Under the pieces are notes generated by a model. The model ran no database searches. It saw only the letters and a program-made list of their open reading frames with translations, and had not been told where the DNA came from. The position numbers and the translations under genes were made by a program. From contig JAGTXX020000001.1 in assembly GCA_019044685.2 (NCBI GenBank), positions 1 through 64,000 on the forward strand: a stretch of DNA of 64,000 nt. Direction: 5' to 3'. The DNA comes from Nannochloris sp. 'desiccata'. Its lineage: Eukaryota; Chlorophyta; Trebouxiophyceae; Chlorellales; Chlorellaceae. Of this stretch, positions 1,964-15,828 are shown one piece after another (within the stretch, counting starts at the first letter, position 1; each line of letters starts with the position of its first letter).

Positions 1964-2321
1964 AATGATCTGGAATGGAGACGTCCAATATAGGAGAGTC
2001 CGACAGGGGATCAGTTTTCCATTGCACCGCTACGACAAAAACATCTTGAACTTGATTCAGTCTAAGGTCGCGTTCATAAGTAGCCATGCTGCACAGAGGG
2101 AACGACGGTGCAGGAACCTTATCTGAATACAAGAGTAATTCCATTCCATCAGCAGTAGACAGTTGGACTTGTTGCTGCTTAGGCATGAACGTAACGTCGG
2201 TAAACTGATCCACCCAGTCCATACCAAGAATGACATCAAAACCAGAAAGCGGAGCAACCACAAAGCTATGAGTACCACGATATTCACTAATACTAAGAGA
2301 AATGTTCCCCAGCACTTGTTT
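1923..2321 (-). pseudogene. Gypsy protease C-terminal half and protease-RT linker
   Basis: This frame contains the second half of an aspartic protease fold (FDVILGMDW, the usual flap-distal motif of Gypsy proteases), followed by linker sequence. The frame ends at 1923 just as the RT thumb starts in another frame at about 1963, so an internal deletion with a frame change removed the RT palm. The N-terminal half, including the D-T-G-A active site, lies on the other side of the CACTA insertion (14977-15828). The 3-bp duplication TTT at 2319-2321 and 14977-14979 shows that the two halves were once contiguous. Confidence 0.88.
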
Positions 2322-2360
2322 CACTATAGGAAAAAAAGCTTGCTTATCTTGAGCTTATCT
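2322..2360 (+). repeat. CACTA left terminal inverted repeat
   Basis: It begins CACTATAGGAAAAA and ends in GCTTATCT. It matches the inverse complement of 14939-14976 except for an AAGC/GTC difference after the A-run. It starts directly after the TTT duplication at 2319-2321. Confidence 0.95.
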
Positions 2361-2625
2361 TTTTTCTTATCCTCGGCTTATCTCGTGCTTATATTTTTCT
2401 TATCCTTGGCTTATCTTACACCCAAGTTTCTTATCTTTGCTTATATCTGTAGCACTATAAGCAAGATAAGCAAGATAAGAAAAGATAAGAAAAATAAGAA
2501 AAGATAAGAAAAATAAGAAAAGATAAGAAAAATAAGAAAAGATAAGAAAAATAAGAAAAGATAAGAATGTCGAGCTAAAATAAGAAAAGATAAGAAAAGA
2601 TAAGCATATTCTTATCTTTGCTGCT
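2330..2625. repeat. CACTA left subterminal GATAAG array
   Basis: Dozens of short CTTATC/GATAAG motifs occur in both orientations. Up to about 2460 they read mostly CTTATC, then invert to GATAAG. From 2480 to 2620 they condense into a near-perfect tandem of GATAAGAAAAATAAGAAAA. In CACTA elements such subterminal motifs bind the transposase complex. This is by analogy; the binding itself is inferred. Confidence 0.85.
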
Positions 2626-2661
2626 GTTATGCAGGTTAAGCAGGATAAGCAATTATATGGC

Positions 2662-3245
2662 TCACTCCATAGACCCGTAATCCGCCTCATCCTCATCGTA
2701 CTCCTCCTTGCTCAGCTTGCTCTGCTTACCTGCCTTCTTCGCCTTCTTGCTTGGACCACCATGGTCCGGACTGCCACTCGCAAAGGCATCACTGGTGGTA
2801 AGAAGGGATCTCTTGGTAGCCTGCAAAAAAGAATGGAGAAGGGGGAGAAGACGAAAAAAGAGTTAGTAGCTTAACTTAAACAACAGGAAATATGAAATAT
2901 AACTCACCGTTCCTGCTGCTACGTTTACCTGCAAAGAAGAACCATTTGAAAGCTTGAGTACTTTATCACACAACTAAATTCATAAGAAATGTAGCTTACC
3001 TTGTTATGCAACCTTGGAGATTTCCGTGGAGACGTGACTTCCCCAGTAGCCTTGTAGAACTGAGCCCTCGAATCTCCAAATGTCTCTTTCGTTGGGAGGC
3101 TATCCCATTCTTTTCCAGGGAGTGTTCCTTTCTTGTAATGCGTCTCGAATTCTTTAGCCCACGTGGCAGCAGTTCTTTTCCATTCGTCTCCATGAGCACT
3201 ATATGCTTTTGCCGCCTTAGTGTCACAGACTGACTCACTCCTTTC
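2662..3245 (-). CDS. Small basic cargo protein, 5' end unclear
   Basis: Three exons splice in frame on the minus strand: about 3245-3000, a 21-base micro-exon 2928-2908, and 2820-2662, all with GT-AG borders (introns 2929-2999 and 2821-2907). The product has a charged N-terminal half rich in Lys, Trp and Thr, then a KSPR-type basic stretch, then a Lys-rich and finally acidic C-terminus ending GSME. It looks nuclear (KKAKKAGKQ) but has no recognised domain. No in-frame ATG precedes the first exon, and a TAA lies just upstream. The other frame stays open across that point, so the 5' end is either frameshifted or uses an exon I could not place. It may be a decaying gene. Confidence 0.55.
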
Positions 3246-3463
3246 TTCCTTGAGATTCCTTTAGATTCTCTTCTTGAATCCGATGCTGTTGATTGCTGAA
3301 CACTCTTTAATTGTTATCTAAAAGTGCTGTAACGTTGATTTGCTGAATAGAAAGTTGCTAGAAGAGTTAAACTCTAACACTGGTTTCAGCTTTGGATTTT
3401 GGAAGCCCATCTAATCATAAAAATTCCAAAATTTAGAACTGACCTTGTTGGCCCTGTTGTTGT
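3246..3463. promoter_or_regulatory. Divergent intergenic region within CACTA
   Basis: This short AT-rich spacer separates the minus-strand basic-protein gene from the plus-strand gag-like ORF. It probably serves as leader or promoter for both. No LTR, primer binding site or terminal repeat was seen here, which matters for deciding whether the gag-like ORF belongs to a nested retrotransposon. Confidence 0.35.
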
Positions 3464-4414
3464 ATGCCTGTACTCCGCAACGGAAGACAAATAGGTATTA
3501 TGAGTCAAGCTGATGAAGGAGAGGCTGGCGCAAGCCAGCAGACCGCTGTGATCTTGAGTCCATTGGACGAGTTTAAAATGAAGAACGAAGTTGCGAAGCA
3601 ACTGCGGGCTGGAGGAGCCTTTAATGGTGATCGAAGTAAGACCAAAGGTTTCGTAGAAAGAGTAGAGCGTATGTTTGGGGGTAGTGTTGGTGATTATCTC
3701 TCCCCCAAGTTGCGAGCTGAGGCTGTGGTCGAGTCTTTCGGCCCCGAGGTAGAGAAGTCCTTTGGCCTCGTTCGTACTGCTGAGTTGCTGAGTTCTTGGG
3801 ATAATGTGAAAGAATGGATTCAATCGAATTACGGTGATCCCAATAACCCTCGTCTGGAAGCCGTCCGAGTGCTGAAAAAGATTTCTTTTGTCGGCCGCTC
3901 GGTGCCCAAAGAAACCGAAAGACTTGCTGAAGCGTTCAAAGAGTTGGGCATGGATCCTAAAACAGCAGCTTTGTTCTATGTGGATGCTATGAGCGAAGAA
4001 TCAGTTTTTGATTTCATGTCACAGTATGGCCGCGTGTTTGAGAATTGGGACTTCCAAGAACTGGTTGCGACAGTGAATCCCATGGCTGAGAAATTCAACC
4101 AGAAGGCGAAACAAGCTAGGGGAGGTCCTACTGATAAGCCCGCTTATACTCCTAAACCCCCGACCAAAAGGAGCGGTGGTGGGTTTAATTATGCTGCTAT
4201 GCTGGAATCACTGAGTGCTGTGAAATGGCTGACTGGCGATTACAAGCCTGCAAATGTTGAGGCATTGAAAGCTAAGCTGGACGACACGAACCCAGATAGC
4301 GAAAAGTTGAGAGCTTTTATACGCCACCATAACTTGTGCTTCATATGTCGTCAATCTAATCATAGGTCTACCCACTGCCCCAACAAGAATTCTGGTGGGG
4401 CAGGTCGCCAATGA
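3464..4414 (+). CDS. Gag-like protein with CCHC zinc knuckle
   Basis: A 316-residue ORF with a helical capsid-like body, a basic proline-rich linker around residues 215-245, and a C-terminal zinc knuckle CFICRQSNHRSTHC (CX2CX4HX4C) near residues 297-310. This is the layout of a Ty3/Gypsy-type Gag, which would form particles and bind nucleic acid through the knuckle. It is intact and differs from the Gag of the surrounding Gypsy element. A second Met lies at residue 13. Its stop overlaps the next ORF's start in ATGA, which suggests coupled termination-reinitiation or frameshifting. No reverse transcriptase follows, so it is either cargo of the CACTA element or the remnant of a nested retroelement. 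Confidence 0.8.
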   Translation: MPVLRNGRQIGIMSQADEGEAGASQQTAVILSPLDEFKMKNEVAKQLRAGGAFNGDRSKTKGFVERVERMFGGSVGDYLSPKLRAEAVVESFGPEVEKSFGLVRTAELLSSWDNVKEWIQSNYGDPNNPRLEAVRVLKKISFVGRSVPKETERLAEAFKELGMDPKTAALFYVDAMSEESVFDFMSQYGRVFENWDFQELVATVNPMAEKFNQKAKQARGGPTDKPAYTPKPPTKRSGGGFNYAAMLESLSAVKWLTGDYKPANVEALKAKLDDTNPDSEKLRAFIRHHNLCFICRQSNHRSTHCPNKNSGGAGRQ

Positions 4415-5052
4415 GCGCTGCTGCTCCGCTTTACAGCGCAGCCAGCAGGCGTTGTGAAGTGACTTGGAGTTGGTTTTCCGAAGCCAACCAAGCTGGGCTG
4501 GATCTAAAAATGGATCAAAAGATGGAGTTTAATACGCAACTGAATGTGTCGGAATTAAATACTTATTCCGTTGTTGCTGAGCCAACAGTCGGCTGGAGTT
4601 CTGAGCCAACTTTTGCCGCTGTGAAGGACGATGCTGTTCCGCTGACCACTGTTTATAATGCTGTGCTGAATAAGAAGAATGTTCGTGTTCTTATTGATAA
4701 TGGATCAAGTTTCAATATTGTCTCTGAGTCTTTTGTCAGAAAGAACGAATGGCAAACGAACGCTGCTGCTGCTGTAAATGTCACTCTAGCTGATGGCCGT
4801 CGCCACAGCGGTGACCGAGTGTTGAGAAATTCTAAGTTGAAGTTGGGCTGTGTTAATGATACGCTGAATCTACGAGTCTACCCAGTGCAAAACTATGATG
4901 TCATTCTAGGGGTACCGTGGTTGATTAAAATGAAGGCTAATATCGACTTTAGCTCAGGTGATTTAGTCGTGCTGAAAAATGGTAGAGTGAAGAAAATTAA
5001 ATCGGCAACTACCGTCGCTAAAGAAAGTAATGCTGGGCGCCGCCCAGACTAG
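4411..5052 (+). CDS. Retropepsin-like aspartic protease ORF
   Basis: This 213-residue ORF overlaps the Gag-like stop by four bases (ATGA). The protease core has VLIDNGSSFNIV, where D-N-G-S replaces the common D-T/S-G, a substitution also seen in plant Gypsy proteases. The conserved NYDVILGVPWL follows about 90 residues later. The N-terminal 80 residues are not recognised. The ORF ends after a basic stretch with no RT, RNase H or integrase. It converges with a minus-strand gene, overlapping its 3' end by 35 bases. With the upstream ORF it forms a Gag-protease pair that could assemble and process particles; that function is inference. Confidence 0.75.
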   Translation: MSAAAPLYSAASRRCEVTWSWFSEANQAGLDLKMDQKMEFNTQLNVSELNTYSVVAEPTVGWSSEPTFAAVKDDAVPLTTVYNAVLNKKNVRVLIDNGSSFNIVSESFVRKNEWQTNAAAAVNVTLADGRRHSGDRVLRNSKLKLGCVNDTLNLRVYPVQNYDVILGVPWLIKMKANIDFSSGDLVVLKNGRVKKIKSATTVAKESNAGRRPD

Positions 5053-6152
5053 CCTCTTCATTCTTGACTTCAGCTTCCGGGTTCGCCAATAACTTCTGCG
5101 CTATCTCCTCGCCCATCTTCCTACTCCGGTTTGCACCCTTCACGTGCTTAACGATGAGAGACTTCATTTGCATGGGAGTGATACTCTTCGATGCTCCGTT
5201 TGCAACCCTGGTGTTGACATACAAGTCCCACAGTATCCGGTTCACGGCGGCTTCCCATACAGGTACGATGTACATTCCACTTTCCTTGTCTTGTGCCATA
5301 TACTTGGCCGACAGTTCCCTGATGTGACGGTTGTGCGCTGCAAAGAAATAAAAAGAATATTTAGACAGAATATTTAGATACGGTCACTGGAGTGCCGCCG
5401 GACCGGCGCATTGGGTCCATTACCCTCCTGAAAGATAGCCCAGTGACCCAAGTGAACTCATGAGCGGTTTACTTACGATCTCCTTTGCCACGGCGTTTGG
5501 GATTAGCAGGATCCCTTGTGTCACTCGTGAGCGTCTCCTGGGTACCCAAAGTCAACGTAATGCGCGCATGAGGGTCGTCCGCATGAGTCATTGAAGGCCC
5601 TTTGGTTTCCGCGTGGGTGTCGATGTTAACTTCGTATACAAGCTCCCAGACCATTTTTCCCTCTTCACTGCATACAAAGAATAAATGCGATGACATTTAT
5701 CATCACCATCCTCCTCAAAACCTGCAGTTCTACTCCAGTAATTCAAATCATCGATGAGGAGCATCTCACCTCAAAGTCGCGCTGCTCCCCAGCGCCATCT
5801 CCGCGTACGCGCGCGTTGGAGTTGCAATAGCTTTTTTAATCAGACTGACCACTTTATGCTCAGGTGTCACTGCAAGCTGGGACGTGCCCTCGATGGTGAT
5901 CCCGCGCTTATAACAAACCTCCATTGCGCGGCCATAATATGAGCTTACCTTCGCTTCCAAGCTACGCAAAACAGGCTTAACCATAGCTTCTACCCCGTCC
6001 TCGTCGATATCGACAGACGTCAGCTCCCGGGGGGGCGGTGCCTTACCAATGATCGAATTCATTTCACTCGGATTAATGCGCAACACAAGTGCGCTGTAGG
6101 TCTCCTCCTCCTCTGGAGCCTTGCTTGTGGTCTTTGTGGATTTTTTCGCCAT
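5018..6152 (-). CDS. Unknown three-exon CACTA cargo protein
   Basis: Exons 6152-5770, 5667-5477 and 5337-5018 join in frame (phases 2 and 1) to give about 297 residues from the ATG at 6152. The protein begins MAKKSTKTTSKAP, a basic Ser/Thr/Lys tail, followed by an acidic run and ETYS. There is a long helix around residues 60-95 ending in YKRGITIEG, a middle region rich in charged residues, and a helical C-terminus. I do not recognise a family. The second intron (5338-5476) contains one of the GTCACTGG inverted-repeat modules. Upstream coding-like sequence continues in frame without a Met to 6205, then breaks frame relative to a possible ATG at 6285. The original start may therefore have been further upstream. 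Confidence 0.7.
5382..5448. repeat. Intronic inverted-repeat module, copy 1
   Basis: GGTCACTGGAGTGCC at the left is mirrored by GATAGCCCAGTGACC at the right, enclosing about 35 bases. It sits inside the intron 5338-5476 of the minus-strand cargo gene. Related modules occur in other genes of this CACTA element. Confidence 0.8.
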
Positions 6153-6373
6153 CACTTTGCGCTTCAAGAGTGTTATTTCTGCCTGCAAATTTTGAATTTC
6201 ATCTTCTTAACCGCTCCTCGTTTTCAACAATTCCTGGGACAAAACGAAAGCCGTCCTCCTGTACGCTTATTTCTGTTAAATCCATTCAATTGTATTCAGA
6301 AATATATTATTAGACCATCTCAGTGTGCGTTTATCTTTCCGTTTAACTCTTCCCGTTCAAATATTTAAATGCA
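6153..6373. promoter_or_regulatory. Divergent promoter region, cargo gene and transposase
   Basis: This region lies between the minus-strand cargo gene and the transposase ATG at 6374. On the minus strand it also contains about 26 coding-like codons starting with an ATG at 6285. They end in a stop where the neighbouring frame continues the same charged, coil-like pattern, so part of it may be former coding sequence with a one-base change near 6208. A minus-strand intron there cannot be excluded. Confidence 0.4.
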
Positions 6374-9300
6374 ATGGAGGAATCGGACCATGATGGGCCC
6401 AGCTCCGCAAACCACTCCCAACCTGTAAGCTTTGGAGTGGGATTACGCTATGAACATCACGATCTGCGGTTGCAACGTCCTCAATGGGTCTTTGCTGACG
6501 TTTTGGCCAAGTCCAGGGACGCCATCTCAAATCAAGATGTGTACCAGATCAAGATAGTTCACGATGGCGAGGTCCGCCACGTTGCTGTTGACAGCTTGAG
6601 GGAGATTCCAAGAGGTAGAAAAATCCCATCAACTCATTTGGATCACGAAGAAAATTGCAAAAAATGCGAGCAGGGTTTGAAGGGCAAAAATGCGCGCTGG
6701 TTTTATTCTAGCATCCATTACAGTGGAGAGTGTGTGGAGTATTACAAAGCTCGAGCTCAAAGATCTAAACGCCAGCGGCGTGCTGAAAACGCCTCGGACG
6801 GTGAGGATGCCTTGGTGCCGGTAAGTTTGAGGTCCAGTCACTGGGGTACCCTTTTCCTTGCAGTCCCTCGTTGATTCGGTGCTTTCAAGACAGCCCAGTG
6901 ACCTAGCCCATTTCCTGCAGGCCGATATCGACGAAGAAGACGTCCTGCTAGACCGCGATCCAGAAGCACACCCTTTCCGCACATACGACGCTAGAATTCA
7001 TCAATACTGGGAAGATGGCGCAGTGGAAGAGGCCGAAATTGGCAGCGACGACGATGAAGATGCCGGTGGTTTTGAGCCCTTTTGGGATTCCGGATTCCAA
7101 TTCCCAGAGCCTGAGGAATTGGAAGAACCCGAACAGGGTCCTGCAGGAGGTGATGATCACCGCCATATCCCCCCACCCGAGGTTTATTTCGATAGGCTCC
7201 TCGACAACGAGTACCCAGATCTGTATGCAAATGATGATGGCCAAGCAGGCGAAGATACACCTGGCAAGGTGGCCTACTACCGCAAGCGGCTGAATGACCC
7301 TATTCACCACGCTACAGACACTAAGCTGAAGGATCATTTAAATTATTTGGCTATCCAATACATTGGCGAAACTCGGGACCACTTTGAGAAGTGGCTTAAA
7401 ATATTACAGATGGGCTTCCCAACTCCAAACATTGTACCTACAAGCGCGTACGTCGTGATGAGACTCGTAGGCGTTCGAGATCTCGCAGACCACATCTATC
7501 ACTTTTGTCCTTGTGGGCGATACCGCTACGCAAAAGAGCCAATTGCTAAGTGTACGCAAGCCTTTTGTCCAAAATGTGGGGAGACACGATTCCAGAAGGA
7601 CGTCAATGGTCGACTCTCGCCTCGATCGTGGTGCTTTTACTTGGGCCTGGATGTTGCTATCAAGGAGTTCCTCTTTGCCAATCCAAATTATACCTCGGCG
7701 AGAGTTGCTGCAAGAGGTTTTGACCTAGGGGAACACACCTTTTGGGGGTGCAAGGAGACAAAACGCTATCGCCAATATTTCGTGAAACACTTCAATAAAG
7801 ACTATCTAGCTGATGCAAACAATGATGCATATGAGTTGTTTGGTGATTTCTTTCAGTCTTTTAAGGGTAAAAATCACAGTACCGGTGCAATTTTATTACG
7901 GAGTCTAGGCCTTGACACGGAGAAACGGGCCCAACTTGAGTTCACAGTGCCCTTGATGATAATTCCTGGCCCTAAGGCTCCTAAACATGCAACTCCCTAT
8001 ATGGAGCTGATAGCTAGGGACTTCATGAATCTATTGAAAGATGGAGTAGAGATCTCTGGGGCCGTCAAGTGGGCGGACGTGGATCTTGGGAAGGAACCTG
8101 TCTTGGTGCGTGTCCCGCGATTCCGACATAGGCCAATCCTAGTTGGTTTTGACGGAGATATCCCTATGCAACAGTGGGTTGCCAACTCAATCAAGTCTTG
8201 TCAAGCTTTTCTGGCGTGTTTTAAGTGTTTGATGAATGGAGTTAAGGTAGGTCACTGGGCTGCCGCTCAGCTGTTGATTTCGCTGCTTTCTTCATTTTTT
8301 TGACACCCCAGTGACCCTGTATAATTTAGTGTTGTCTGCAGAATTACAGGAAATATGAGACCAGAGCTACGGTGTACCCTGGGTTTAATGAACCCCTAGA
8401 GTCGACTGTAGGCCCCGGACTAGGCAAATCTTACCAGCTAGGTGTTGATGCGGAACGCGGTTTAACCCACAAGCAACAGAAAGCCCGCGCCGAGGCTGCC
8501 GAGAAGGACGGCAAGAAAGACCGTCATAAACGTTGGGGTGTCTTTGGTCCGTGCGTCTTTATGAAGTATCTCCCATACCTAGATTACAATAACTTCTTCA
8601 GAACGCCCCTACACCACATATTCCTGCTGGGGCTTGTGAAAGATTTTTGGAAAGAGGTCTTACGATGGGATACAAAAGGTGCGTGGCGACCAGATGAGCA
8701 ATGTTTTGATGAGATCTGTCTGTCCAAAGAAGATATCAAACTGCTACGCAAGATGTTTGACGAGGGCGAGTTCAGAGTGACGTGGGATTTTAACCGAGCT
8801 GCACCAAAGCTCCGGTATCTAGGACAGTGGATGTGCGAAGACTGGTTGCGCTTCACTCTTGTCTTCTCTCCCTTCATTCGGCGTGAAATTATGGGTGTGG
8901 AGCTGCCTCCGCTGGCCGCAGAGATGTGGCAAAACTTGCGCAAAGCTGTGATTTATTATATTTACTGCCTGAGTGAAGAGGATTATTCTGAAGAGAAACA
9001 GGAAGAAGCCTATGCCGCTTTGTTGAAATATGGCCAGTTGATTGAAGCCAATGTACCCAGGAAGCTCACTTCACAACTCCACCGCGCTGCTTGTTGGCTG
9101 CCACGTCAGCTGGTTAGACTGGGTGCAACAGGTTTGTATGGGGAGTTGTACGGCGAGAGATCTTTGAAGTTTTTGAAGAATGCCACTGGAGGCACTTCAG
9201 TTCGTGACCCTGAGAAGATCCAGGCCAACGCTATGCTGTTCCGAGCTGCATTGTATACCTTTGCAGCCATCCACAGGGCCATACTCCCTTCGGAATTAAA

Positions 9301-10003
9301 TGGAAGGGACGATGAGGAGGTACCGCCTTTATTGATGGATGATGGTGATGAGGTTCCTGGCCTAGGGGTGGACGGGTCAGTTTTAGGTGGTGAAATGGCG
9401 TTGCTCGGCAATGGACACTCGCCCACTCCACTGGAGCGCGAGGAGGCTTTAGATTTGCTAATCCATTTATTGGATGAGAGACGTAAAACACGCAGCCCCG
9501 GTGAAGTGGAAGACGATGATTTGTGGTGTGACTTGGTTACGGAAGACAACCTTCGTGAATTAAGCCACGAGGGCATGTTGGAGATTGCAATCCACAGTTA
9601 TGCTTGTATACACAGAACTCGGTGTATTGCCTCTACTCGATTCAAGCGCTCTATAAGCAGAGTGAATAAATACGTGCAAGTCAGGTATAATGAGGAGCCT
9701 TGGGTCGCAGAGGTGCAGTATTATGCCCGCTATACCTTACACGGTTACAACTTGCCTGTGCTGAGGGTCGCTTGCTGCAATTTTTTTAAGGCTAAAGATG
9801 CCTTGGGCGAATCTGATACTTGCATTCTCCCAGCCACCTTGGAAAAAGGACTCTCCAACCCCGAAACCGCGTGGGATAGTACCAACTGGCCAGTCCCCTT
9901 GGCATCTATTGACCGGCTCTTAATGTATTACAAGAAAGAGACTAAAGAAAGAGAGGAATATTTCTTCAAAGAATATGATTTTTACTCTAAAATTAATCGG
10001 TAG
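6374..10003 (+). CDS. CACTA transposase, tnp2 family
   Basis: Three exons (6374-6820, 6921-8246, 8342-10003) join in phase 0 to encode about 1144 residues. Visible parts are an N-terminal Cys/His-rich segment (HEENCKKCEQ), an acidic linker, a four-cysteine cluster at about residues 345-370 (CPCG and CPKCGE), and the tnp2 hallmark VPLMIIPGPKAPKHATPY near residue 497. After this comes an acidic site in FDGDIP, and LHHIFLLGLVKDFW near 680. This order fits transposases of CACTA/Plavaka-type elements, which cut and paste DNA at the CACTA ends with a DDE RNase H-like core. The catalytic triad was not assigned. Both introns contain the GTCACTGG inverted-repeat module. No disabling mutation was seen, so the element may be autonomous. 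Confidence 0.9.
6836..6903. repeat. Intronic inverted-repeat module, copy 2
   Basis: AGTCACTGGGGTACC at the left pairs with GACAGCCCAGTGACC at the right. The module occupies most of transposase intron 1 (6821-6920), starting about 15 bases after the GTAAGT donor and ending shortly before the CTGCAG acceptor. Confidence 0.85.
8250..8316. repeat. Intronic inverted-repeat module, copy 3
   Basis: GGTCACTGGGCTGCC at the left pairs with GACACCCCAGTGACC at the right. It begins three bases into transposase intron 2 (8247-8341), so the module's own GGTCAC merges with the donor site GTAGGT. Confidence 0.85.
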
Positions 10004-11918
10004 CTGTAACTATCTTTGGTTTTTTACTGGGCCCAGCTTCTCCTAGCAGCAACAAAGCATTGGCATTCTCTACCTTGCTCTTCCGTTCTGCTAAAATGTC
10101 TAAAGCTACCTCGTAAGCTCTTGGTCTCTTGACCTTTTCAAACTGCTGTTTGACAAAAAGTCTTTCTTCTTTGCTCAGGAAAGTGTCGATGTCTTTAAAT
10201 TTATTAACTACCTCTCTCTCCACGTTGTAGATGTAATGATTCAAAGATGCCTTGGCCTGAATATCTTCTCCTCTGTCAATACGTACAGAGTCTACAACAT
10301 CCTTCACGTCCACCGGGGCCTCCCTCACACGCCTCGTCACTGTCTCTGCTTCCTCTCTTGTAAACACCTTTGCACCATCACAATACACCGCTGTTGCCAT
10401 AGCAGCAGCAGCATTGACCATCCTTGCACTGTCATGGTGCAGCGAGCTATTAAAAATTTTTTCAAACAAAGCTCGAGGAACGAGCAAGACACTGTCCTGT
10501 AATTTGCCACCTTTTTTCAGAAGAGGGTAGGTGGTTTGGAACAGCCCAGACCTTGCCAGCACTATATACATGTTGTAAGCATGCAAGTCACGCTGTGTGG
10601 TAGTTTGTGCGTCAAGGTTAGCGATGGCATCTGGCACAGAAAGGACCATCAGCGAGTTGGATGGGAGCCACCGAAAAATGCGCTGCTTGAACTCACTAGT
10701 ACTCAAGCTGTCACATTCCAACAACCAGTTATTAAGGTAGTCTTCAGCGGGAGTTATCGTCTGCACGAAAAAATAGAGAAAAGTTTGTTAGATTAGAGGA
10801 AAGTTATTAAGATGCCAGCAGCACCCCATTCTCCTTGGCATTACGCTGAAAAAGGAAGCCCAGTGACTCACCTCGTCTTCATCATGAGAAGGGGCTCCAG
10901 CAGTGTGCGTGGAGCCCAATGTGGCACTGGACGGCTCAGAACCAACAGAGACATCGCTGGCGTCGTCGTCAGATCCAGCATCAACCAACCTAGCGCGATT
11001 TAAACCAGCAAGTCCTTCAGCGGGGCCAGCTAGCATACCAGGTGCTGTTTGCAATGGATACAAAGCAGCGGAATCTTCATTGTCGCTGGAGTAGGTAGTA
11101 TTAGGTTCTAATACATCCCCCACATTGCAGAATAGGCGTCCAGGCGGCGTACGTAACTCCAATGCAACCCCCGCTTTGATTTCTTCCATCGTTGGCAACC
11201 TAGCCTCATGAAGATTCCTTCTAGTTGTGTGATACAAACACACCCCTCTAAAGTACTGAATCAACAGTAACATGATCTTCCTAGGAGTATGTTCTCTATT
11301 TTTTTCTTTCATATCTTCCTTGAGTGAAGCGATGGCTTCCACCAAAGGCACCCACTCAACACCGTCGGCGTCAACCAAAGGAGTAAACACGCCAACACCG
11401 GGCATAAGAAACAAAGTAGAATCATCATCAGTTTCGTTCAGAGACCTACATCAGTACGCATGTCCATTAAGATGGCAGACCACGAGGAAAAAGGCAATAA
11501 TAAATAAAATGAAAATAAAAAACACATGCGGCCGAGACATGCTAATCACTCACCAAGCGTCTACTTTCTGTTCCATTCCTTTTACACCCGCCATGACCAG
11601 GGCACCTAAAGCAGTGATAGGATGAGTATTACCACTAGTTCCCTCCATGACGAAAGGGCCTCTAGAGGGGACATTGATAGTGGTGGATTTATTAATGCCA
11701 AATCTTTTTAATAAAGATCTCCTGTGATTCGGATCGGTCACCCTGAGCACCTCAGATAATACAGTGCTTTTATCCTGTGGCCACGAGAGAGATTGTATAG
11801 CTTCCAAAGTCGCGCTGGCTTCGGGTGTGAGGAGTTCAGATGCTTCGATGAGTGCATCTGCAATGCTTAAGCCACCCGGAGGGGGCTTGAACAGCTCAGC
11901 AGCGGACATGTTGTTCAT
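9993..11918 (-). CDS. Unknown three-exon CACTA cargo protein (568 aa)
   Basis: Exons 11918-11554, 11445-10872 and 10760-9993 join in frame (phases 2 and 0) with GT-AG introns, giving about 568 residues from MNNMSAAELF. The N-terminal half is mostly helical. The middle, around residues 220-313, is acidic and Ser-rich (SDDDASDVSVGS). The C-terminal half is helical with basic patches and ends KKPKIVTATD, suggesting a nuclear protein. No family was recognised. It converges with the transposase, overlapping its 3' end by 11 bases, and diverges from the Ulp1-H3 gene. The intron 10761-10871 begins GTGAGTCACTGGGC, one half of the intron module, without its partner. Such position and size recall the second (tnpA-like) protein of CACTA elements, but nothing in the sequence proves that role. 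Confidence 0.75.
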
Positions 11919-11980
11919 ATTATTTTTAATCCCTGATTACATAGGTAATTTGGGGTTTTGGAGGCAATTCAGCGAAGTCG

Positions 11981-12002
11981 GGTCACTGGTGCCCAGTGAC
12001 CC
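11981..12002. repeat. Perfect palindrome GGTCACTGG/CCAGTGACC
   Basis: The two arms of the module meet with almost no spacer (GGTCACTGGTGCCCAGTGACC) between the divergent 568-aa cargo gene and the Ulp1-H3 gene. It is the only copy outside an intron and could be an operator-like site or a collapsed module. Confidence 0.8.
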
Positions 12003-12104
12003 TGGAGCCCGAGCGGGATATTCAAAACCATGAGGGTATTTGCTGCAAATCACCACTTGTTTATAGAGTAGAAACATTGAACAATAATTACCAGGAGAGT
12101 GTAT

Positions 12105-14620
12105 ATGGCGAGAACTAAACAAGTAGCTACTTTAAGAGAGGGCCACCCTCGAGGAGCTCCATCTAGATGAGATCTCGTGGGGAAAAGATGTTGGATTCCA
12201 CCCGCAAGGGGGCCGAGGGCCAATTCAAGCCACCCAGACCTCCCAAAGGCGTTAAAAACGGCGCAGGTAGCGGAGCACCCAAGGTTGGCGCCGGCAATCG
12301 TCAATCGCAAAGAGCAAAATCGCAAATGGACGCTACTTCCCCAAGAAGGAGCAACCGTCAGGCAGGAAAGGGAGTGGACGAAGCTGAAAAGGTCCAGGTA
12401 AGCTATGAGCTATACATATACAACGACACCAGTATTAACTTGTTGTATTTTCATGGTCTAATTCAAATGTTCAAATTAGTGATTGATCTAGCACACTGAA
12501 CTCACCCAATCATTATCTTTGCAGGAACCGGCAAATCCTTCAAACAAAGAAGGAAAGGAAGCAAAGGCCGCTACTGAGGAAACAGCGGAGGGTGCAGAGG
12601 ACAGCGAGGCTACTCACAGCGTTGCAAAGGCAGATGGCACCTCAACCCCGGCAGAAGCCGCGCCGGAATCTGAAAAGCCGGTAGAGGCCGCTTTAAAGGT
12701 TGAAGAGGCTGGTAAAATAGATACCAGCGCGACGGCGCGGCGATTGGGGAAAGAAGCAAAGGGTGATTTGGTAAGTCACTGGGCAGCCAAATTAAAGCAC
12801 TTTGCACCCTATCTGCAGCAGATTTGACACCCCAGTGACCGACTGAAATTGATTATTAATCCCTTATTTTTTTTCCACAGGTTGACTTGATGTCTCTACC
12901 TGACAGTCCGAAGCGTACAGAAATACCTGGCATCAAGAGAGTGAAACCCAAATTGGCACAGCTTGTGAACCAACTGGTGGAACGCTTCCCCAAGGGCCTC
13001 GTGGCTCACGTGGATGAGAATGGCCCTCTGGCGTTGGATGCTGAGGTGGCCAAAGCAATAGACATTCTCTATGAGGAGATGATGAAGCTGGAGCCCAGCG
13101 CGTCCCTCGGAGGGCTTAGGTCTCCCGACATTAGTCGCCTTCTTAACTGGTCACCTACATATGCACGTGACATCCAGAGGATGAAAGCAGGTGTTTGGAT
13201 CAGTGACGAGGGTATCAGGGCCTTCATGCATGCTGGATACCACGGGATGTCTGAGCAGCGGCGGCAAGAAATGGTGCTCATCGACCCTCTGAAGTATGTT
13301 GCAATTAAAGATAAGGAGAGAAGAAAGGAGGCTGGTGTGGCAGAAACCCCAGGAGATGAAGTAGATAAAACGGCGCAACAACTGAAAGAACATGCCAAAG
13401 GAGCTAAAATGATTGTGGTGCCATGCGTGGACAATGCGGCAGCGAAGTACCACTATTACACAGTGGTTCTTGATCTGGAAAAAGAAAAGACGATTCTCTT
13501 GGACAGCTTTCATGGCAACATTGAACCATACGAGGATGTGCACCAGGAGATTGCAGATGAGGTAGTACAGTGGTTCAACAACTGCACTGGCCTCTCACAT
13601 CCCAAGGAGTTGAGTGTTGAATACCTGCAAGAATTCATGGGCGGCAAAGATGCTCCTCGGACCATTCAAGATGTTTTAGTGGATAGTGTTAACTGTGGCG
13701 CCTACTGTTTGTACTACATCTGGATGATCATGATGGGCTGCAAGAAGGTCGACAGCGGAGCAATCGACGTCTTACAATTTAGGAAGTTCATAACTGCTGC
13801 GATCATCACTGCCCTTGCTATTCAAGAAGGAGGGGCCGCAAGCGTGGAAATAGATGAAGCGATGGAAAAACCAGTGCTTGACGCACCTGCTGCCCCTGCT
13901 CCTCCTGCTAAGGCACCTGAGCAAAAAGTGCAAAACAAAAGAAGAGTGGACAATGGTCCTTCAGGCTCAGGCACCGTGCAGAAGAAATCTAGGAAGCCTA
14001 GTACCCCTTGGCAGTACGTGACTAAGGTTACTGATACCGTTTACGACCCGAATCGCCTTGAACACATGCAAGGCAAACTGGATCATAACGAAGTCGCAGC
14101 AGCTATAAATAAAATTCCTAGAAACGCACGGAAGAAACTGAGTTGGTTACTGGAGATAAGGAAGCTGAGGGGCGAATACTTTGCAGACCATCTGATGATC
14201 CCAAAACTGAGTTTTCAGCGCCTGGTACGACAGATCTTACGAGCGGTGGAGGGCTGCAATCATTTGATGACGGGGGAGGCACTGGTTGCACTGCATCATG
14301 CTGCTGAGACATATTTGGTGCACTTGTTTGAGGATACGGTTGCATGCGCTTTGCATGGCAAGCGCGTAACTGTGCAGACAAAGGATATTGCTCTGGCATT
14401 GCGTCTCAGAGGCGAAGGTCACATATACGATGCATTTAAAATGGAACAGGCTCATACCCAGCCTGAAAAGCGGGAGGCCCCTGATGACCCTAAGCGACTT
14501 AAAAGGTGGGAGGAAAGGGCGGCAAAGGCGGAAGCAAACCAGAAAGAAAAGCAGAAGAAGAAACGTATTCAACCCACGCTCGTGGGCCCTGCAAAAGAAG
14601 TGGGTGAAGGCAGTCACTGA
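12105..14620 (+). CDS. Ulp1 (C48) protease fused to histone H3 fold
   Basis: Exons 12167-12397, 12525-12770 and 12881-14620 join in phase 0 to give 738 residues. An upstream ATG at 12105 opens MARTKQ, the exact start of histone H3, and could join through a 44-base intron (12123-12166) or a lost frame. The N-terminal 190 residues are basic, then Glu/Ala-rich. In the 12167 numbering, a Ulp1/SENP catalytic triad fits H350 (YHYYTVVLD), D367 (LLDSF) and C431 (NCGAYC). The H-D spacing of 17 equals that of yeast Ulp1. The oxyanion Gln is displaced. After a Pro/Ala linker, residues about 573-672 are a histone H3 fold: [39 protein letters not shown]. The C-terminus is Lys-rich. A deSUMOylating, nucleosome-associated enzyme is inferred. 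A possible last intron (14600-14694) would end the protein at an immediate TAA. Confidence 0.87.
12775..12840. repeat. Intronic inverted-repeat module, copy 4
   Basis: GTCACTGGGCAGCC at the left pairs with GACACCCCAGTGACC at the right. It starts four bases into the Ulp1-H3 intron 12771-12880, overlapping the donor GTAAGT. Confidence 0.85.
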
Positions 14621-14678
14621 GGTGCCTGCACTGCTCCTCTCACCAGCAGAGTTGCCCGTTTATGGTAGCCCAGTGATT
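14612..14678. repeat. Inverted-repeat module, copy 5, at the Ulp1-H3 3' end
   Basis: AGTCACTGAGGTGCC at the left pairs with GGTAGCCCAGTGATT at the right, the most diverged copy. The annotated stop TGA at 14618 lies inside its left arm. It also fits inside a potential intron 14600-14694 (donor GTGGGT, acceptor TTTTTTCACAG), which would make it intronic like the others. Confidence 0.75.
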
Positions 14679-14779
14679 ATTTATTTTTTCACAGTAAAAT
14701 CTCCTTGTATTTTCTATCTTTATTAGTTTTCTTTTCTATATCTGCCTGCAACCTTTCTTTCTTTTCAGTGTTCAATGGA

Positions 14780-14938
14780 ATTAATTAATTAATGCAAGAT
14801 TAATAAGAATAATTAACAAGATAAGCAAAGATAAGACAGGATAAGCACTGTGTACGAAAGATAAGCCAATATAAGCAAAAGATAAGACTAGTGGAAAAGT
14901 ATAAGCCTAAGATAAGAACTGCTTATCACATAAGTCAC
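14780..14938. repeat. CACTA right subterminal GATAAG array
   Basis: More than ten GATAAG(C/A) motifs, mostly in one orientation, with spacing of roughly 8-20 bases, lie directly inside the right terminal inverted repeat. It mirrors the left array but is shorter and lacks the condensed tandem. Confidence 0.85.
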
Positions 14939-14976
14939 AGATAAGCTCAAGATAAGCAAGACTTTTTCCTATAGTG
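14939..14976 (-). repeat. CACTA right terminal inverted repeat
   Basis: It ends CCTATAGTG at 14976, followed by the TTT duplication. Read on the minus strand it starts CACTATAGGAAAAA and continues TTGCTTATCTTGAGC like the left end. Confidence 0.95.
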
Positions 14977-15828
14977 TTTACACTCGTGCTTGGAGCCATC
15001 AAAAGCTCTAACTACTAAACTTCTACCACGCTGTAGCGGAAGCTGTTTTGCACGAACCAGTGCTTCAGACACGAAACTGCCTTCAGCAAACTGAAACTGA
15101 AACTGAAACTGAAACTGAAACTGTTACATTAAAGTGATCTCTAGCAACAAAATATCGCGTCATCACTCAGGGTTCAGTAGAGCATCCTCTCAAAGTCTAC
15201 TAGGAGGTATACGAGCCCCATGGCTTCATAAAAACAAAAAGAAAAACTGAAGCTAAAAGGAGGCGGGACTCGTTCCGGTAAGATGAACCCCTAGGAGCTT
15301 CCATCCAGCTCCCTTCACAAAAATCATCATCAACTTTAATAAACATAAAATAACCTTTGTACATTGCATATCATCCACCATGGTGTAATGGGATCAGATA
15401 GAAAGAGGTAAATTCATGAAGCCCGCCGCCTCCGGTGCCGTCGTGGTGGCGGTGGGTTAAGTACTCGGTGCTGCTCCTCACACTTCTTGACAAGCACCAG
15501 TATCAATAAAGAATCTAACGGTAGAACTACCTAATTTGCCAGTAAAATACATCAATGTACTAGATCTTTCTTGTAGATCTCTTCTAGATTGAATTCTAGC
15601 TAAAATAACACCAAGCGGAAATTCCTTCTGCTGCTGAAGACGCTCTAACATAGCTTCTTCAATAAGATCCCAATCATGGGTTAAACTTTCTAATGCATTA
15701 GTTTGGTCATCACTCATTGACTGACCAATTCCAGGATTACCACTGGAACAATCATTCTTTACAGAATGGTCCCTAGCACCTTCAATTACAGAAACTACTG
15801 GGACACTCAGTTTGGGGACTTCCCGCAC
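14977..15828 (-). pseudogene. Gypsy protease N-terminal half, split by a LINE
   Basis: The frame opens at 15828, overlapping the gag stop by 22 bases in a different frame, as in gag-pol frameshifting. It reaches the protease active site FIDTGA near 15493. There a 405-base LINE fragment is inserted. The protease frame resumes at 15087 and runs to 14977, where the CACTA element interrupts it again. Both insertions hit within about 110 bases of ancestral sequence. The pol gene is dead. Confidence 0.87.
15088..15492 (-). mobile_element. 5'-truncated LINE 3' end, copy 1
   Basis: On the minus strand it begins in the last codons of the LINE ORF, includes the whole 3' UTR, and ends in a (TTTCAG)n tail, read here as CTGAAA repeats at 15088-15122. 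It is nearly identical to 18735-19108. AGC(A) flanks both sides as a short target duplication. It sits exactly at the Gypsy protease active site. Confidence 0.9.

What the first reader, a model, noticed from the sequence alone, without database searches (positions are those of the whole stretch)
12105..14620. A transposon-encoded fusion of a Ulp1/SENP protease with a histone H3 fold
Seen: one spliced gene inside the CACTA ends encodes a C48-type triad (H350, D367, C431; H-D spacing 17 as in Ulp1) and, 140 residues later, a histone-fold block carrying [26 protein letters not shown] and RGE in H3 order and spacing, including an alpha-N-like WLLEIRKL. Known: CACTA and other plant transposons often carry Ulp1-like genes, and histone H3 is almost never fused to enzymes. 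Inference: the protein could enter nucleosomes or bind H4, placing a deSUMOylase on chromatin to block silencing of the element or to direct insertion. I know of no described system of this kind, but I could not search.
Basis: partly seen in the sequence, partly recalled or inferred. Interest (0 to 1): 0.93.

Follow-up and report, generated by a model that had tools for sequence, protein, structure and literature searches.

The report
Transposon histone H3 fused to protease
A transposon in a green alga carries one reading frame that joins a histone H3 core to a domain that is likely a SUMO-cutting protease, so the element would be able to place its own enzyme inside chromatin.

Summary
Window 2322-14976 is a 12,655-bp CACTA element (matching CACTATAGGAAAAA ends, TTT duplications) whose empty site survives in a gypsy copy on contig C14. 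Inside it, one frame of 586 codons, with no intron between them, encodes both domains. The H3 domain is beyond doubt (Pfam E 5.5e-19; best solved match CENP-A, E 6.5e-18). The Ulp1-like domain is missed by Pfam but aligns to C48 proteases with W, H, D and C in register: hhalign score 37.6 (probability 67%) against at most 25.5 in 200 shuffles and 23.4 in 88 real windows. New: MARTKQ, the H3 tail tip, is encoded 62 bases before the gene's first in-frame ATG; its coding pattern occurs seven times in the genome, six at host H3 genes. Searches of 5.8 billion proteins showed no second such fusion. Stand-alone H3 genes in fungal hAT transposons and Ulp1 domains in plant transposons are known; I found no report of the fusion. 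Likely role (inferred): an H3 stand-in carrying a deSUMOylase into chromatin against silencing. Expression, tail-tip splicing and activity are untested.

The parts
2322..14976 (+). CACTA transposon, 12,655 bp, inserted in the protease region of a Ty3/gypsy element
   Evidence: ends CACTATAGGAAAAA / TTTTTCCTATAGTG; empty site on C14: joined flanks align over bases 1-309 of 400 at 99.0%, across the junction at 200
2319..2321 (.). left copy of 3-bp target site duplication TTT
   Evidence: sequence; empty site
14977..14979 (.). right copy of 3-bp target site duplication TTT
   Evidence: sequence; empty site
2322..2335 (+). left terminal inverted repeat CACTATAGGAAAAA
14963..14976 (-). right terminal inverted repeat CACTATAGGAAAAA
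12105..12122 (+). MARTKQ, the histone H3 tail tip, upstream of the gene (21-codon frame, stop at 12168-12170, if unspliced)
   Evidence: pattern occurs 7 times in the genome, 6 at the host H3 genes; expected 3.8e-6 in 500 bases of one strand
12123..12166 (+). possible 44-base intron (GT..AG) that would put MARTKQ in frame with the gene; inferred
   Evidence: frame check, model B of 745 aa without a stop; only GT in the small frame; no transcript evidence
12167..12397 (+). exon: basic N-terminal region (public protein starts at 12188)
12525..12770 (+). exon
12881..14620 (+). exon holding both domains; would end at 14599 if a possible intron 14600-14694 is used, followed at once by TAA
   Evidence: U7
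13130..13849 (+). Ulp1/SENP-like (C48) protease domain, inferred from remote similarity
   Evidence: hhalign score 37.6, 187 columns; controls
13196..13198 (+). W265 of the WISDEGI motif, aligned to WLND of SENP1
13451..13453 (+). predicted catalytic His350
   Evidence: aligned to the SENP1 His
13502..13504 (+). predicted catalytic Asp367
   Evidence: aligned to the SENP1 Asp
13694..13696 (+). predicted catalytic Cys431
   Evidence: aligned to the SENP1 Cys
14105..14410 (+). histone H3-type domain (alpha-N to alpha-3)
   Evidence: PF00125 E 5.5e-19; CENP-A and H3 chains at E about 1e-17
6374..10003 (+). transposase-like gene of the element (exons to 6820, from 6921 or 6864, intron 8247-8341; splice sites read by eye)
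   Evidence: frames; about 26-27% identity to long frames on C2 and C14; no Pfam family

Best explanation
An intact reading frame inside a CACTA transposon joins a histone H3 core domain to a domain that is likely a Ulp1/SENP-type (C48) cysteine protease, and the protein is predicted to be built into nucleosomes as a stand-in for H3 so that its protease would strip SUMO from silencing factors on the element's own chromatin. Shown: one element, one stop-free frame, a real H3 domain, a protease-like domain whose Trp, His, Asp and Cys align with those of C48 enzymes, and the MARTKQ tail tip encoded just upstream. Inferred: the H3 domain pairs with host H4 (core, H3-H3 and loop-2 residues are mostly kept), the protease cuts SUMO rather than another tag, SUMO supports silencing in this alga as it does in yeast, plants and animals, and local deSUMOylation keeps the element expressed and mobile.
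For: H3 domain. Identical to human H3.1: H3-H3 interface 7 of 9, loop 2 (KRVT) 4 of 4, H3-H4 core 15 of 23, ASF1 contacts 4 of 5 (contact lists and the H3.1 sequence recalled). C48: hhalign 37.6, probability 66.7%; 0 of 200 shuffles reach it (best 25.5), 0 of 88 scored windows of other real frames (best 23.4), 0 of 101 windows around the transposase relatives, some the same frames as (best 19.0). Second H3 feature: MARTKQ. Recent mobility: a second right end on C16, 954 bp at 99.9%, with a different flank. Precedents: Ulp1-carrying VANC/KIU genes linked to hypomethylation of their own elements (review passages); [quoted passage not shown] H3-like genes in fungal hAT transposons.
Against: Pfam finds no C48 domain, and the domain matches no C48 chain among solved structures at E up to 10; hhalign probability is only 66.7%. 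The oxyanion Gln is not in place: the aligned residue is Thr, and the nearest Gln lies two residues on, inside a 5-residue insertion, nine before the Cys. H3 contacts lost against human H3.1: identical are only loop 1 0 of 2, alpha-N 1 of 4, alpha-1 3 of 5, positions 87/89/90 0 of 3, K56/K79/K122 1 of 3. AlphaFold models are weak: pLDDT 38.5 for both domains from one sequence, 52.7 for H3 with four. No relative of the fusion elsewhere, so conservation cannot be tested. No expression data. Joining MARTKQ to the gene needs an unproven 44-base intron.
Confidence: 0.42

Rival explanations
1. Passenger capture: the element picked up H3 and protease pieces by transduplication, they fused by chance, and the protein does nothing useful in chromatin.
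For: In Pseudocercospora the H3 copies captured by a hAT transposon are all inactivated (abstract). The H3 domain sits on a long branch. One full copy, plus one truncated right end that a palindrome doubles, is all that was found in the genome.
Against: The frame stays open for 586 codons, the four protease motifs align, and the H3-H3, loop-2, H4-core and ASF1 positions are kept more than the overall 42 of 86 identity to human H3.1.
Confidence: 0.25
2. Targeting: the H3 domain (perhaps CENH3-like) brings the transposition machinery to particular chromatin such as subtelomeric repeats, which directs insertion there.
For: Both known insertions lie within 15 kb of a contig end; the C1 one is in a gypsy element and the C16 one is next to gypsy-like frames. 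Best solved match is CENP-A, by a small margin.
Against: Only two insertions; the related elements on C2 and C14 also lie within about 42 kb of contig ends, so survival bias could explain it. The tree does not place the domain with CENH3.
Confidence: 0.18
3. The protease matures the element's own proteins or removes another tag (ubiquitin, NEDD8), and the H3 fold is only a dimerisation or DNA-binding unit.
For: C48 includes SENP8-type NEDD8 proteases (recalled); loop 2, a DNA contact of H3, is intact.
Against: Kept H4-facing residues and the MARTKQ tip argue for a true H3 role.
Confidence: 0.15

Closest known systems
H3L, histone H3-like genes in hAT transposons of Pyrenophora tritici-repentis (PMC3538342, passages), and the hAT-captured H3 of Pseudocercospora, Cercospora and Sphaerulina (PMC6710886, abstract and passages)
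   Same: A DNA transposon carries a diverged H3; in Pyrenophora the H3L proteins have insertions in the tail, match neither H3 nor CENH3 completely, and have ESTs
   Different: No protease reported in the passages seen, hAT not CACTA, fungi not algae
KIU / VANC proteins of Arabidopsis Vandal (non-TIR MULE) elements (review PMC13317346, passages)
   Same: Transposon gene with an Ulp1 domain; KIU elements induce hypomethylation of related elements
   Different: Mutator-like element; no histone domain mentioned; the review calls the Ulp1 function there unknown
Ulp1 or OTU domains in Ginger1, Mutator and other transposons (PMC2836005, passages)
   Same: Ubiquitin-like protease domain in a DNA transposon; a role in transposition proposed
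   Different: No histone mentioned (the word 'histone' does not occur)
Canonical and centromeric histone H3
   Same: H3-H3 interface, loop 2 and core residues
   Different: About half identical, 3-residue insertion between alpha-N and alpha-1, loop 1 one residue longer than H3, a roughly 560-residue N-terminal part with a protease-like domain
macroH2A (named in a passage of PMC9145170)
   Same: Core histone with a large folded domain attached
   Different: H2A, host gene, a macro domain rather than a protease

Membership tests
CACTA (EnSpm) transposon | terminal inverted repeats beginning CACTA | tested here: met
   14 identical bases at both ends
CACTA (EnSpm) transposon | 3-bp target site duplication | tested here: met
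   TTT both sides, empty site on C14
CACTA (EnSpm) transposon | TnpD/Transposase_21 transposase | tested here: inconclusive
   long transposase-like gene 6374-10003 with relatives on C2 and C14 (about 26-27%; 33% over the best part), but no Pfam hit
CACTA (EnSpm) transposon | subterminal short repeats | tested here: met
   GATAAGC-type repeats seen by eye in 2340-2620 and 14800-14960; one pair (D15); not tested against chance
Histone H3 | significant match to the core histone profile and to H3 chains | tested here: met
   E 5.5e-19; CENP-A 6.5e-18, H3.3 1.5e-17
Histone H3 | alpha-N, alpha-1, loop 1, long alpha-2, loop 2, alpha-3 | tested here: inconclusive
   helices 6-24, 34-49, 57-84, 92-101 in a model of pLDDT 52.7; the top 4 of 26 Foldseek matches are nucleosome or H3-H4 entries, but the best E is 0.015, none reaches 0.001, and TM is 0.28-0.29
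Histone H3 | incorporation in nucleosomes with H4 | not testable with these tools
   only residue conservation
Centromeric H3 (CENH3) | longer loop 1, clusters with CENH3 | tested here: inconclusive
   loop 1 one residue longer than H3; tree unresolved
C48 (Ulp1/SENP) peptidase | match to PF02902 | tested here: not met
   no hit at E up to 10
C48 (Ulp1/SENP) peptidase | WLND-like motif, His, Asp, Cys in order and register | tested here: met
   hhalign alignment and controls
C48 (Ulp1/SENP) peptidase | oxyanion Gln a few residues before the Cys (six in SENP1) | tested here: inconclusive
   aligned residue is Thr; nearest Gln is nine before the Cys, in an insertion
C48 (Ulp1/SENP) peptidase | cleaves SUMO or a related tag | not testable with these tools
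   no assay
VANC/KIU anti-silencing proteins | encoded by Vandal/MULE elements | tested here: not met
   the element has CACTA ends and a 3-bp duplication
VANC/KIU anti-silencing proteins | acts through short motifs in the element's non-coding DNA | not tested
   a shared motif exists in introns and a promoter gap, no binding data

The most novel reading that the evidence does not exclude
A Trojan-horse histone: the transposon encodes an H3 whose K4-bearing tail tip (ARTKQ) and core bracket an inserted deSUMOylase, so the enzyme is installed in nucleosomes and presented to H3-tail readers, an enzyme-armed histone used by a mobile element against silencing. With the two fungal hAT cases it would be a third capture of H3 by DNA transposons, pointing to histone replacement as a recurrent strategy.
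Probability: 0.3. Interest if true: 0.93.

Novelty: new variant of a known kind. Interest (0 to 1): 0.78.

Why it matters
Core histones fused to enzymes are rare (recalled), and I found no H3 with a protease in the searches named in the report. If the protein enters nucleosomes, a selfish element would be editing chromatin from inside, and the arms race between transposons and silencing would include fake histones. It also gives a natural design for tethering an enzyme to chromatin through H3, and it makes testable whether the repeated capture of H3 by DNA transposons (fungal hAT, now algal CACTA) is selected.

Tried and rejected
Pfam, NCBIfam and solved-structure searches for the protease domain found no C48 match; I did not take this as disproof because the hhalign score stands clear of shuffles and real controls. 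The motif expression matched 0 of 200,000 shuffles and 1 of 63 frames of 200 or more residues (this gene), but it was written with the query in view and matched only 2 of 6 reference C48 rows (two of the six being fragments), so it carries little weight. AlphaFold on both domains failed (pLDDT 38.5); its strands and helices around W, H, D and C seemed to fit C48 but were not used as evidence. The H3 model is weak too. The tree could not tell H3 from CENH3 (no branch well supported, the domain on a long branch). Protein searches found no other H3-protease fusion (1 hit, itself, with only the 7,995 best candidates scored; 2 hits of 1,111 candidates, itself and P0002); the H3-only search scored just 9 candidates and says little. 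P0002, a 904-residue Tetrabaena prediction at 46%, joins a near-canonical H3 to an ADP-ribosylglycohydrolase-type domain and two H2B-like stretches (domain names from recall of the accessions and of the sequences); I take it for neighbouring genes predicted as one (inferred), not a relative of the fusion. Viral contigs: none. Gag-protease frames at 3443-5046 were first taken for element genes; they lie in a 99.8% copy of a gypsy piece on C2, so I rejected them as CACTA genes. A 43-base reading of the intron at 6821 was considered as precedent for the 44-base one, but a 100-base reading fits equally. PMC5821449, the one paper listed, was not opened. The papers were seen as passages only.

Full report
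WHERE. The window starts with CCCTAAA telomere repeats and is one end of contig C1 of a 21.55-Mb, 18-contig genome. A protein 100% identical to the query over residues 1-400 and 395-579 is named Ndes2526A_g00005 of Nannochloris sp. 'desiccata', and the contig length given for another protein of that species, 502,837, equals that of contig C16 here. So this is that green alga.

THE ELEMENT. CACTATAGGAAAAA stands at 2322 and, inverted, ends at 14976, flanked by TTT on both sides. A gypsy element on C14 runs uninterrupted through this site: the two flanks joined without the element align to it over bases 1-309 of 400 at 99.0%, across the junction at base 200; the rest of the right flank is another repeat, found elsewhere on C14, C16 and C2. 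That is direct evidence for insertion of a 12,655-bp element with a 3-bp duplication, as in CACTA. GATAAGC-type subterminal repeats are visible at both ends. A second right end, 954 bp at 99.9% identity (and 958 columns at 99.4% in the other arm of a 9.6-kb palindrome), lies near the start of C16; its terminus is identical but its flank differs, so I read it as a separate, recent insertion. The left end was found only once. A transposase-like gene (6374-10003) has relatives at about 26-27% identity on C2 and C14 but no Pfam family. None of 101 sequence windows around those relatives looks like C48, and no match to the window's protein was reported there.

THE GENE. The public protein P0001 implies exons 12188-12397, 12525-12770 and 12881-14620. 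The last exon holds both domains in one frame that stays open for 586 codons (chance 1.1e-14), so the fusion does not depend on splicing. Codon-position composition is broadly similar along the frame, the linker differing somewhat.

HISTONE PART. Pfam core histone E 5.5e-19. Of 184 distinct solved chains matched at E up to 1, 60 were shown; the best are CENP-A (6.5e-18), with H3.3 at 1.5e-17. Identity is 48 of 98 to host H3, 38 of 86 to the host CENH3-like protein and 45 of 95 to human CENP-A (human rows recalled). A three-residue insertion follows alpha-N and loop 1 is one residue longer than in H3. The tree leaves its affinity open. Identical to human H3.1: H3-H3 interface 7 of 9, loop 2 4 of 4, H3-H4 core 15 of 23, ASF1 contacts 4 of 5, alpha-1 DNA contacts 3 of 5, alpha-N contacts 1 of 4, loop-1 contacts 0 of 2, positions 87/89/90 0 of 3, K56/K79/K122 1 of 3 (contact lists recalled). 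The structure model is too weak to add much.

TAIL TIP. The bases at 12105 read MARTKQ, the start of histone H3. The degenerate pattern for MARTKQ occurs seven times in the genome: at the six host H3 genes and here, with none for the reversed control. Composition predicts 0.33 in the whole genome and 3.8e-6 in 500 bases of one strand. The frame stops after 21 residues; the only GT in it falls right after MARTKQ, and removing 12123-12166 (GT..AG) puts it in frame with the gene as a 745-residue protein. Whether that intron is real is unknown; an upstream peptide is the alternative.

PROTEASE PART. Pfam, NCBIfam and solved structures give no C48 match. I built a small C48 alignment (SENP1, SENP2, Ulp1, SENP8 recalled, two host C48 pieces) and compared the single sequence by hhalign: score 37.6, probability 66.7%, 187 columns, W265, H350, D367 and C431 aligned to the corresponding residues. 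Best of 200 shuffles 25.5; best of 88 scored windows of other real frames 23.4; host C4 SENP7-like protein as positive control 118.7. The oxyanion Gln is uncertain. The alga has C48 genes of its own (C4 SENP7-like, C6 SENP1-like, C11 SENP8-like); a genome search with the protease part found only itself.

RELATIVES AND PRINT. Searches of 5.8 billion proteins with the protease half and the histone half showed no other H3-protease fusion (in one search only the 7,995 best candidates were scored, and both reach only relatives that share exact words). In print (open library; listings, partly cut): fungal hAT transposons carry stand-alone H3 genes (PMC6710886 abstract and passages, PMC3538342 passages), and plant Vandal elements carry Ulp1 domains in VANC/KIU genes linked to hypomethylation (PMC13317346 passages). 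I found no report of the fusion.

MECHANISM. Inferred: the H3 part pairs with H4 and enters chromatin, the protease removes SUMO there, and silencing, which SUMO supports in yeast, plants and animals (abstract of PMC8131101), is weakened over the element. The VANC/KIU case is the nearest precedent for a Ulp1-bearing anti-silencing gene, although the review says the function of its Ulp1 domain is unknown.

Noticed in passing
5383-5447, 6837-6902, 8251-8315, 12775-12839, 14613-14677: Introns (one annotated, the others likely) of this one element share an inverted repeat GTCACTGGG...CCCAGTGAC with start-to-start spacing 56-57 (some arms with one mismatch). The exact form occurs at 3 places in the genome, all in this element. 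Introner-like introns or protein-binding sites.
   Followed up: partly
11982-12000: The same motif as an abutting inverted pair (one arm with a mismatch) in the 186-bp gap between two divergent frame starts (11918 minus, 12105 plus); a shared control site would resemble the short non-coding motifs used by VANC proteins.
   Followed up: no
10859-10867: A single arm of the motif at the start of a likely intron of the minus-strand gene.
   Followed up: no
14600-14694: A possible last intron overlaps the annotated stop codon; its removal would bring TAA at once and drop the last residues VGEGSH.
   Followed up: no
3220-5053: A gypsy gag-protease piece inside the element, 99.8% identical to copies on C2, so a very recent nested insertion.
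   Followed up: yes
L017 1-9579; C2 30867-41085: Large palindromes (9.6 kb and 10.2 kb, both about 99.45% identical) near contig ends, the first holding the second copy of the H3 end of this element.
   Followed up: no
L019 418-747 (C14:660717-661046): Host CENH3-like H3 variant with a Trp at the start of alpha-2 and a longer loop 1.
   Followed up: partly
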